Assembly (NCBI RefSeq): GCF_003932895.1 | Contig: NZ_RQYW01000016.1 | Coordinates: 1 to 53,051, forward strand | Reading direction: 5' to 3' | Length of the DNA: 53,051 nt | DNA from: Leptotrichia sp. OH3620_COT-345 | Lineage (GTDB): Bacteria; Fusobacteriota; Fusobacteriia; Fusobacteriales; Leptotrichiaceae | Shown here: one piece after another, positions 20,970 through 30,921 of the stretch | Layout of the letters: each line of letters starts with the position of its first letter | Position numbering within the stretch: the first letter of the stretch is position 1 | Position numbers and translations under genes: made by a program | Notes under the pieces: generated by a model | What the model saw: the letters and a program-made list of their open reading frames with translations, nothing else | The model's database searches: none | Told to the model about the DNA's origin: nothing

Positions 20970-21006
20970 AAAGGAGAAAGCTATATTTTACATAGCTTTA
21001 ACAGAA
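20970..21006 (+). promoter_or_regulatory. Shine-Dalgarno with intervening hairpin
   Basis: AAAGGAG (20970-20976) is followed at once by AAAGCTAT (20977-20984), a 7-base loop, and ATAGCTTT (20992-20999), a perfect 8-base-pair stem. Seven bases then lead to the ATG at 21007. Folding the hairpin brings the ribosome binding site to normal spacing. Confidence 0.5.
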
Positions 21007-21156
21007 ATGGAGTTTTACAAAAGATTAGTGATAAAAATTTTGGAAAGAAGCAGTCTGGCAGAAGATAATCCTCTTTTACAGAAATTAAAATCGGGGCATG
21101 ATTTGACTCAAAAAGAAATGGTTTTACTTGAAGAACTTTTTGATTCGATTATTTAA
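21007..21156 (+). CDS. Small hypothetical protein, 49 residues
   Basis: A short ORF between dinB and pepD with no homologue I recognise. The product is charged and helical, beginning MEFYKRLVIKILERSSL and ending EEDLFDSII-like (EELFDSII). No membrane segment or signal peptide. Support comes from the Shine-Dalgarno upstream (bridged by a hairpin), its same-direction position, and codon use like its neighbours. It could still be a chance ORF. Confidence 0.5.
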   Translation: MEFYKRLVIKILERSSLAEDNPLLQKLKSGHDLTQKEMVLLEELFDSII

Positions 21157-28950: not shown

Positions 28951-29412
28951 ATGAATATTGTTCTGCTAAATCCTGAAATTCCATATAATACCGGAAACAT
29001 AGGAAGAACATGTGTTCTGACAAATACAGGATTACATTTAATAAAGCCTTTGGGATTTTCCTTAGACGAAAAAGCTGTAAAAAGATCAGGACTTGATTAT
29101 TGGAAAGATGTACAGTTATACATCTGGGAGGATTTTGAACATTTTTTAAAAGAAAATATAGAAAATAAAAATGCAAATTTATATTTTGCAACGACTAAAA
29201 CAGAAAAAAAATATTCAGATATTAAATATGAAAAGAATGATTATATCATGTTCGGTCCTGAATCAAAAGGTATACCAGAAGAAATACTGAATAGATATAA
29301 AGAAAATAATATTACGATTCCTATGCTTCCTTTAGGTCGTTCTATTAATTTGTCAAATTCTGTGGCAATTATTTTGTACGAAGCATTAAGACAGAACAAT
29401 TTTGAATATTAA
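28951..29412 (+). CDS. trmL: tRNA (cytidine/uridine-34-2'-O)-methyltransferase TrmL
   Basis: A 153-residue SPOUT methyltransferase modifying the wobble ribose of tRNA-Leu. Family motifs are NPEIPYNTGNIGRTC at the start, MFGPESKGIPEEIL, and the knot-forming IPMLPLGRSINLSNSVAIIL. The ATG at 28951 follows AAAGGTGATTTG; a TTG one codon earlier is also open. Confidence 0.95.
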   Translation: MNIVLLNPEIPYNTGNIGRTCVLTNTGLHLIKPLGFSLDEKAVKRSGLDYWKDVQLYIWEDFEHFLKENIENKNANLYFATTKTEKKYSDIKYEKNDYIMFGPESKGIPEEILNRYKENNITIPMLPLGRSINLSNSVAIILYEALRQNNFEY

Positions 29413-29430
29413 TATATAAACTATAAGAAA

Positions 29431-29541
29431 GAAGGAGGTAAGTTTACTGTAATCTTAGTGCAGGAGTCATTTTAAAAATAGAAATTGTTTTCTGTTTTTT
29501 AAATAATTTCTGTTAGAGATTAAAAACGGTAAATTAAGAAA
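29431..29541 (+). promoter_or_regulatory. Structured leader separating thyA from its ribosome binding site
   Basis: A near-ideal Shine-Dalgarno, GAAGGAGGT (29431-29439), is not followed by a start codon. Instead AGTTTACTGT (29441-29450) can pair with ACGGTAAATT (29526-29535), ten pairs with two G-U. Next AATCTT (29451-29456) pairs with GAGATT (29516-29521). Inside, a hairpin runs from AATAGAAATT (29477-29486) to AATTTCTGTT (29505-29514). Folding leaves about 8 bases between GGAGG and the thyA ATG at 29542. Confidence 0.55.
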
Positions 29542-30411
29542 ATGAAAGAGTATCTGGAACTTGTAAATTATGTTATAAAAAATGGAGTAAAAAAAGAAAA
29601 TAGAACAGGAGTGGACACCATTTCCGCTTTTGCTTACACATATAAAGTTGATTTGAGCAAAGGGTTTCCTTTACTTACAACAAAAAAAATGTACTTCAAT
29701 TCAATGTTGCATGAGCTGTTCTGGTATTTAACAGGGGAAGAGCATATAAAAAATTTAAGAACAAAAACTAAAATATGGGATGCTTGGGCAGATGAAGAAG
29801 GCAGACTTGAAACAGCATATGGAAGATTTTGGAGAAGATACCCTGTACCTGAGATTTCTTTGGATGGAGAAGTTTTTACAGATGAAAATAACAGGTGGAC
29901 CACACGAGAAAAGAACGGTCAGCTTGTTTTTGATCAGATACAGTATATAATAGACACATTAAAAGAAATGAAAACAAATCCTAATCATAAAAATGGAAGA
30001 AGACTTATTGTGTTGGCATGGAATCCGGGAAATGCTTCAATAAGCAAATTACCTCCTTGTCATTATACATTTGCATTTAATGTGCTTGGTAATAAACTGA
30101 ATTGTCATCTTACTCAAAGAAGTGGAGATATAGCTTTGGGGATACCATTTAATTTAGCATGTTATTCGCTGCTTACAATGATGATTGCAAAAGAGTGCGG
30201 TTATCAAGCGGGAGAGTTTTCACATACTATAATTGATGCACATATTTATGAAAATCATATTGAAGGATTGAAAGAACAGCTTAAAAGAGAACCGTTAAAA
30301 CTTTCAAAAATTACAATTGCCGATAAGCCTTTTAATGAACTCAAGTTTGAAGATATAAAACTGGAAAATTATGAAAGTCATCCTGTAATAAAATTTGAAG
30401 TTGCGGTATAA
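29542..30411 (+). CDS. thyA: Thymidylate synthase
   Basis: A 289-residue enzyme methylating dUMP to dTMP with methylenetetrahydrofolate. The nucleophile is Cys173 in LPPCHYTFAF; QRSGDIALGIPFNLACYSLL and HIYENHIEGLKEQL are intact. The start is set by the family's MKEYLELVNYV beginning. There is no Shine-Dalgarno directly before it; the nearest strong one is 100 bases upstream across a foldable stretch. Dihydrofolate reductase follows by 33 bases, pairing the enzyme that makes dihydrofolate with the one that recycles it. Confidence 0.97.
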   Translation: MKEYLELVNYVIKNGVKKENRTGVDTISAFAYTYKVDLSKGFPLLTTKKMYFNSMLHELFWYLTGEEHIKNLRTKTKIWDAWADEEGRLETAYGRFWRRYPVPEISLDGEVFTDENNRWTTREKNGQLVFDQIQYIIDTLKEMKTNPNHKNGRRLIVLAWNPGNASISKLPPCHYTFAFNVLGNKLNCHLTQRSGDIALGIPFNLACYSLLTMMIAKECGYQAGEFSHTIIDAHIYENHIEGLKEQLKREPLKLSKITIADKPFNELKFEDIKLENYESHPVIKFEVAV

Positions 30412-30444: not shown

Positions 30445-30921
30445 ATGTTTAGTATAATAGTTGCAATGGGTAAAAATAGAGAAATAGGAAAAGGAAATAG
30501 ACTTTTATGGCATATTCCTGAAGATTTGAAAAATTTTAAAGAAATAACTATGGGAAAAACCGTAGTAATGGGTCGTAAGACTTTCGAAAGTATAGGAAAG
30601 GCATTACCGGGAAGAAAAAATATAGTTATATCAAGAACTTTGACTAGAAAAGACGAAGATATTTTTCAAATAAACATATATAATGATTTTCAAAATGTAA
30701 TAAGAGATTTTAAGAATGTAAAAGAAGAAGTATTCATAATAGGAGGAGCGGAAATATATAAAGCAGCTTTGAAATATACGGATAAGTTGTATATAAGTCA
30801 TGTAGAATTTTCCGACAAAGAAGCGGATGCATATTTTCCGGAAGTTAATTATAATGAATGGAGATTAAGTGAGGAAAAACAGTTTGACAACTGGAAGTTT
30901 TGTATATATAAAAAATTATAA
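30445..30921 (+). CDS. folA: Dihydrofolate reductase
   Basis: A 158-residue NADPH-dependent enzyme regenerating tetrahydrofolate. Motifs: IVAMGKNREIGKGNRLLWHI, catalytic acid Asp27 in PEDLKNFKEIT, MGRKTFESIGKALPGRKNIV and FIIGGAEIYKAAL. It is encoded directly after thyA, whose reaction consumes the cofactor. AAAAAGGATTG precedes the ATG. Confidence 0.97.
   Translation: MFSIIVAMGKNREIGKGNRLLWHIPEDLKNFKEITMGKTVVMGRKTFESIGKALPGRKNIVISRTLTRKDEDIFQINIYNDFQNVIRDFKNVKEEVFIIGGAEIYKAALKYTDKLYISHVEFSDKEADAYFPEVNYNEWRLSEEKQFDNWKFCIYKKL

What the first reader, a model, noticed from the sequence alone, without database searches (positions are those of the whole stretch)
29431..29544. thyA leader: strong Shine-Dalgarno held 100 bases away by a nested RNA structure
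GAAGGAGGT at 29431-29439 has no start codon after it. The intervening bases fold into a ten-pair closing helix (two G-U), a six-pair helix and a ten-pair inner hairpin. The closing helix ends exactly where 8 bases would remain between GGAGG and the thyA ATG. This could be a regulated initiation site, sensing for example folate or dTMP, or a tolerated insertion that survives because it folds. Together with the hairpin at 20970 it suggests a recurring strategy in this genome.
Basis: partly seen in the sequence, partly recalled or inferred. Interest (0 to 1): 0.52.

Follow-up and report, generated by a model that had tools for sequence, protein, structure and literature searches.

The report
Hairpin-bridged ribosome-binding site before thyA
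In this bacterium the ribosome's docking signal for a DNA-building enzyme sits about 100 bases too far from the gene, and a folded RNA very probably pinches out the gap; the same trick recurs at other genes of related bacteria, although until now it was documented mainly in a phage.

Summary
GAAGGAGGT at 29431-29439 is the only good Shine-Dalgarno (SD) for thyA. The 103 bases from the end of its GGAGG to the ATG fold into one domain (-31.7 kcal/mol, 0 of 500 shuffles as stable) that leaves 8 unpaired spacer bases. Of 26 full-length family thyA loci, 6 lack a proximal SD; all 6 carry a distant SD plus a bridging structure, with different sequences and shapes. The other 20 keep a proximal SD. 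The arrangement recurs at argS, argJ, coaX, ftsZ, alaS and others. In samples of six Leptotrichia-group genomes, 17 of 30 distant-SD genes without a proximal SD are bridged (4.9 expected), against 1 of 19 with one. ftsZ stems are kept in 13 genomes while loops vary; coaX shows two double compensatory pairs between two genomes. Best explanation: a split ('accommodated') ribosome-binding site as in phage T4 genes 38 and 25, used repeatedly on bacterial chromosomes. Folate/dTMP sensing is not supported: no shared aptamer, no Rfam match, unrelated genes. The mechanism is inferred from sequence; no RNA or translation was measured. I found no report of this for Leptotrichia in the open-access papers searched.

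The parts
29431..29439 (+). distant Shine-Dalgarno GAAGGAGGT of thyA
29441..29535 (+). bridging RNA domain: closing helix 29441-29450/29526-29535, second helix 29451-29456/29516-29521, inner arm 29460-29513
29536..29541 (+). unpaired 3' spacer before the AUG (with 29439-29440 makes an effective spacing of 8)
29542..30411 (+). thyA, thymidylate synthase
28951..29412 (+). trmL-like SpoU methylase gene, upstream neighbour
30445..30921 (+). dihydrofolate reductase gene, downstream neighbour
20970..20976 (+). distant SD AAAGGAG of the 49-aa gene
20978..20998 (+). bridging hairpin of the 49-aa gene (7 bp), followed by 8 unpaired bases
21007..21156 (+). 49-aa conserved gene (no Pfam match) with the second split site of the window

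Best explanation
The thyA leader is a split (hairpin-accommodated) ribosome-binding site. The 30S subunit pairs with GAAGGAGGT; the next ~95 bases fold into a domain that starts 2 bases after GGAGG and ends 6 bases before the AUG; the folded domain is left outside the decoding channel, so the AUG lies at an effective distance of 8 bases and can enter the P site. The same solution recurs in the Leptotrichia group at many genes, with hairpins of unrelated sequence and inserts of about 26 to 112 bases. Shown here: the distant SD, the missing proximal SD, predicted structures beyond chance, the narrow residual spacing, recurrence, and near mutual exclusion with a proximal SD. Inferred: that the RNA folds so in the cell, that ribosomes start this way, and that the fold raises thyA translation.
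For: Insert fold 0 of 500 shuffles as stable, effective spacing 8. Of 26 thyA loci, the 6 without proximal SD are exactly those with distant SD plus structure (20 of 26 have a proximal SD), hairpins differing in sequence and shape. Survey of six genomes: 17 of 30 bridged vs 4.90 expected in the class without proximal SD; 1 of 19 vs 1.87 in the class with one (Fisher p 2e-4). Genomes not used to shape the rule: 9 vs 2.52. Most hairpins start 0-3 bases after the SD and end 5-12 before the AUG without any spacing rule. ftsZ: stem kept in 13 of 21 orthologs examined, loop free. coaX: two double compensatory pairs between G000 and G002. Positive control T4 gene 38 found by the same rule; T4 precedent in PMC3014915 (passages).
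Against: No RNA or translation data. Formal covariation tests are uninformative (ftsZ and alaS stems too conserved) or not above shuffles (argS, 211 of 500). Structures in G013, G014, G012 thyA are only marginally beyond chance by energy (21, 28 and 35 of 500) and spacings of 15-16 in G012 and G016 are long. At least one of the 17 survey hits (L111) looks spurious. Nine of 144 orthologous starts have neither a proximal SD nor a bridge, and two have both. Genes for the ortholog table were chosen because they showed the layout. The distant SD could be a relic and thyA could start without an SD.
Confidence: 0.8

Rival explanations
1. Regulatory RNA: the structure senses folate, dTMP or another signal and switches thyA translation, the bridged form being one state.
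For: Highly stable structured leader on a folate-pathway operon; a Leptotrichia leader before fhsA was proposed elsewhere as a tetrahydrofolate-related riboswitch candidate (PMC11109978, passages).
Against: No conserved aptamer between thyA leaders of relatives; no Rfam match at gathering score; no terminator; most relatives lack the insert; the same layout precedes ftsZ, alaS, coaX.
Confidence: 0.06
2. Relic: an insertion separated the SD from thyA and thyA is now translated without an SD, by read-through from trmL or from an internal transcript start; the fold is incidental.
For: Relatives have short gaps with ordinary SDs; one weak promoter-like site lies at 29479-29507.
Against: Promoter-like hits are fewer than in shuffles (2 vs 4.2); fold z -6.93; same layout independently in 6 of 26 thyA loci; intact 8-base SD match kept; recurrence at many genes with constant position.
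Confidence: 0.1
3. Copy of a mobile palindromic element (MITE-like) that landed between SD and start codon.
For: The insert is one long imperfect palindrome; many relatives lack it.
Against: The genome holds one match of the 201-base query; with the 129-base gap as query a second, 43-base, 81% match (E 1.5e-4) appears in C3, which reads as AT-rich chance. The same-genus relative G001 has an unrelated structured insert at the same place.
Confidence: 0.03

Closest known systems
Phage T4 genes 38 and 25: split / 'accommodated' ribosome-binding site (reviewed in PMC3014915, passages read; primary papers not read)
   Same: SD too far from AUG, no SD at normal distance, RNA hairpin between that leaves a working spacer; T4 gene 38 is found by the same scan.
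   Different: T4 inserts are 22 and 27 bases in a phage; here up to 103 (thyA) or 112 bases, on bacterial chromosomes, at many genes including essential ones, with unrelated hairpins. Function shown in T4, only inferred here.
E. coli thrS split ribosome-binding site (PMC3936740, passage read)
   Same: The ribosome is said to accommodate a long hairpin without unfolding it.
   Different: As I recall, in thrS the hairpin separates an upstream single-stranded region from an SD that lies next to the AUG (recalled, not in the passage read); here it separates the SD itself from the AUG.
Leptotrichia riboswitch candidates manA-II and fhsA (PMC11109978, passages)
   Same: Structured leaders in the same bacteria; fhsA is one-carbon related.
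   Different: Described with terminator hairpins and upstream of other genes; no terminator here. Their alignments were not available to compare.

Membership tests
Split/accommodated ribosome-binding site (T4 gene 38/25 type) | Good SD outside the normal spacing and none inside it | tested here: met
   SD 103 bases from the ATG, proximal SD score 0
Split/accommodated ribosome-binding site (T4 gene 38/25 type) | Predicted structure between SD and AUG leaving a working spacer | tested here: met
   effective spacing 8, 0 of 500 shuffles as stable
Split/accommodated ribosome-binding site (T4 gene 38/25 type) | Pairing kept by evolution | tested here: inconclusive
   architecture kept in 6 of 26 thyA loci with different helices; coaX two compensatory pairs; argS not above shuffles; ftsZ and alaS stems nearly invariant
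Split/accommodated ribosome-binding site (T4 gene 38/25 type) | Structure forms in the RNA (probing) | not testable with these tools
   needs SHAPE/DMS
Split/accommodated ribosome-binding site (T4 gene 38/25 type) | Destabilising mutations lower initiation | not testable with these tools
   needs reporters or toeprinting
Riboswitch (folate or other) | Conserved aptamer sequence and structure across relatives | tested here: not met
   thyA leaders differ in sequence and shape; no Rfam match at gathering score
Mobile palindromic element (MITE-like) | Several near-identical copies in the genome | tested here: not met
   one full match; one further weak 43-base match
Standby-site / thrS-type leader | SD adjacent to the AUG with the structure upstream of the SD | tested here: not met
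   structure lies between SD and AUG

The most novel reading that the evidence does not exclude
Hairpin-bridged start sites are a regular initiation class in the Leptotrichia group (about 1% of sampled ORFs), gained and lost gene by gene, and used at essential genes such as ftsZ, alaS, argS and thyA. The ribosomes of this lineage may tolerate or exploit structured spacers unusually well, and the hairpins may tune translation of these genes.
Probability: 0.4. Interest if true: 0.75.

Novelty: new variant of a known kind. Interest (0 to 1): 0.62.

Why it matters
Gene finders and translation models treat a strong SD 25-110 bases from the start as meaningless. If these sites work, a bacterial lineage offers many natural tests of how much RNA a 30S subunit can loop out between SD and AUG, and essential genes such as ftsZ and alaS would depend on it. 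The clade also offers pairs of the same gene with an ordinary and a split site, so the question is directly testable.

Tried and rejected
Riboswitch search in Rfam: nothing at gathering score. Promoter/terminator scan: nothing above chance. Mobile-element search: no real copies. Formal covariation on MAFFT alignments of ftsZ, argS and alaS: stems too conserved, or arms misaligned, to show covariation. A looser survey with 5-base SDs mixed in coding-sequence hits and was replaced. infC of G001 (L136), flagged, was dropped as probably starting at a non-AUG codon near its SD. Loss of ribosomal protein S1 as a cause: S1-like hits exist in all 96 genomes, none over the curated cut-off, so loss has no support. 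E. coli (one 50-kb stretch) gave no distant-SD gene, too small to conclude from. Restriction to the family is suggestive only: 18 of 1404 ORFs in the six genomes against 2 of 549 in three comparison genomes (Fisher p 0.05).

Papers: PMC3014915, PMC6200909, PMC13009471, PMC4631060, PMC11109978 and PMC3936740 were read as passages only; all others as search listings. 'Not in print' rests on the searches in one open-access library.

Full report
WHAT IS THERE. The window is a 53-kb contig of a 2.5-Mb draft genome; the best named relatives of its ThyA are Leptotrichia records. The local gene order is ruvC, a SpoU methylase (trmL-like), thyA and a dihydrofolate reductase gene. Between the trmL stop (29412) and the thyA ATG (29542) lie 129 bases. 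They hold GAAGGAGGT at 29431-29439, no start codon at a normal distance from it, and no SD near the ATG. The bases between fold into one nested domain: closing helix of 10 pairs, 6 pairs, then a stacked arm of 8, 4 and 11 pairs. The insert alone scores -31.7 kcal/mol, z -6.93, with 0 of 500 dinucleotide shuffles as stable. Two bases before and six after the domain stay unpaired, so GGAGG and AUG are 8 bases apart if the domain is ignored.

RELATIVES OF thyA. Thirty-three family genomes were searched: 27 had a thyA-like hit, 26 of them full length and one (G022) partial. In the 26, 20 have an SD match of 4-7 bases at a normal distance and 6 have none. These six are G000 (this genome), G001 (same genus) and G012, G013, G014 and G016 from the genus whose thyA leaders match named Leptotrichia records (compare). 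All six have AAGGAG or AAGGAGG farther upstream with a structure between. The structures differ: a nested long hairpin in G000, a branched one in G001 (82-nt insert), a plain 11-bp hairpin in G013 (47 nt), and long AT-rich hairpins in the other three (80-89 nt). Effective spacings are 8 (G000), 13 (G001), 13 (G013), 16 (G016), 12 (G014) and 15 (G012) (the G016 value is read from the fold). By energy the fold is beyond chance in G000 (0 of 500), G016 (1 of 500) and G001 (8 of 500), and marginal in G013, G014 and G012 (21, 28 and 35 of 500). Two loci with a proximal SD (G024, G026) also passed the automatic bridging rule. G014 also has AAGGAGT touching its ATG, too close to count as a normal SD.

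OTHER GENES. A scan for genes without a proximal SD but with a strong distant SD was run on samples: G000 273 kb, G001 380 kb and 200 kb each of G014, G004, G009 and G020. In these six, 490 ORFs lack a proximal SD, 30 of them have a distant strong SD, and 17 of the 30 are bridged at effective spacing 3-14; shuffled inserts predict 4.90. Of 914 ORFs with a proximal SD, 19 have a distant SD and 1 is bridged; 1.87 expected. Fisher p for 17/30 against 1/19 is 2e-4. The rule was shaped on G000, G001 and G014; the later genomes G004, G009 and G020 give 9 against 2.52 expected (p 0.0012). At least one of the 17 (L111, a kinase-like ORF) is probably spurious. Genes found, named from their sequence by recall and, where noted, by Pfam: thyA (Pfam), coaX, argS, argJ, ftsZ-like (G004 and G009), alaS, leuS, rlmB, a nicotinamide phosphoribosyltransferase (Pfam), a NUDIX protein (Pfam), an ABC ATPase (Pfam), an oligopeptidase, a carbonic-anhydrase-like protein, the 49-aa gene at 21007 and a 281-aa protein without Pfam match. 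A BCCT transporter (Pfam) was found by the earlier scans but not. Comparison genomes: Sebaldella-like G026, 0 of 2 distant-SD genes without proximal SD bridged; G047, 0 of 0; G057, 1 of 2, plus 1 of 3 with a proximal SD.

POSITION OF THE HAIRPIN. Without any spacing rule, most minimum-energy folds in the no-proximal-SD class form a single domain starting 0-3 bases after the SD and ending 5-12 bases before the AUG; the class with a proximal SD shows no such pattern (all rows listed there, including exceptions such as G009 L308, G014 L146 and window 51069 on the minus strand). The mean effective spacing of the 17 is 9.8 against 7.0 for ordinary SDs in the same samples. T4 gene 38, fetched as a control, is found by the same rule (insert 21, effective 7); T4 gene 25 folds likewise but its 4-base SD is below the rule's threshold.

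ORTHOLOGS. For seven genes, each chosen because at least one genome showed the layout, 144 orthologous starts were classed: thyA 26, argS 18, argJ 17, coaX 19, the 49-aa gene 22, ftsZ 21, alaS 21. For argS, coaX, the 49-aa gene, ftsZ and alaS these are the better-matching part of what the searches found. Result: 42 bridged without proximal SD, 2 bridged with one, 9 with neither, 91 with a proximal SD only. Orthologs are not independent, so the formal p value overstates the case; the near mutual exclusion is plain nonetheless. ftsZ is the clearest: 13 genomes keep AAAGGAGA, a GCUACUU/AAGUAGC stem (GCUAUUU in three) and an A-rich tail, while the bases between the arms differ in length and sequence. 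All 77 stem cells pair (11 distinct rows), against 17-48% when the partner is slid by 1-3 columns. Five genomes outside that group (G000, G001, G002, G005, G020) keep an ordinary CAGGAGG next to the start. alaS: nine genomes have an 8-bp hairpin, twelve an ordinary SD. coaX: G000 UGCAAAAU/AUUUUGCA and G002 UGUGAAAU/AUUUCACA differ by two full pair swaps (read by hand; MAFFT misplaces one arm), while G001 has an ordinary SD. argJ: near-identical hairpins in six genomes. argS: five genomes have different closing helices; on the MAFFT alignment only one double change is visible, equalled by 211 of 500 shuffles.

INTERPRETATION. The simplest account is a split ribosome-binding site that works like T4 genes 38 and 25, where a structure between SD and AUG shortens the spacing from 22 to 5 and from 27 to 11 bases and where destabilising mutations lower initiation (PMC3014915, passages). 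What the hairpin looks like varies; what is kept is its position. That argues for a mechanical role and against a ligand sensor. How such sites arise is open: small inverted duplications next to an SD, kept afterwards because the fold is needed, would fit the gene-by-gene, clade-by-clade pattern (inference). Membership in the T4-type class is by architecture only; the defining functional test was not possible.

NOVELTY. The mechanism is known from a phage. Its repeated use on bacterial chromosomes, at essential genes and with inserts near 100 bases, was not found in the open-access searches I made. A 2024 survey of intergenic regions that included Leptotrichia buccalis reports other structured leaders there (PMC11109978, passages), and its supplements were not available. 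I therefore rate it a new variant of a known kind.

Noticed in passing
L172-L181 (argS upstream regions of G007-G011, G013, G015, G017-G019): Ten Leptotrichia-genus argS leaders share GGATTATGCGTTATCC...ATTAACGTAAAT, which could form a hairpin plus pseudoknot (CGUUA/UAACG); no Rfam match at gathering score in the two scanned (L172, L178).
   Followed up: partly
L089:541-1464: In G013 a 307-aa ORF sits between trmL and thyA; the thyA SD lies in its last codons and its stop codon falls in the 5' arm of the bridging hairpin, so terminating ribosomes might open it.
   Followed up: no
Genomes G004 and G007-G019 (table): Three to five FtsZ-like matches per genome, some with stops inside, against one in most other family members.
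   Followed up: no
L136, minus strand, upstream of L136:5875-6363 (G001): infC has AGGAGGTG but its first in-frame ATG lies 41 bases downstream; an AUA/AUU-type start nearer the SD is likely.
   Followed up: no
G014:C1:1343688-1345414: The ribosomal protein S1-like gene appears split into two frames (245 and 372 codons) in G014, while Leptotrichia relatives have one frame of about 606-622 codons.
   Followed up: no
L123 (G001), minus strand, upstream of L123:2902-4593: Longest survey insert: 112 nt closed by an 8-bp helix before an oligopeptidase-like gene, effective spacing 10, 0 of 500 shuffles matching geometry and energy.
   Followed up: partly
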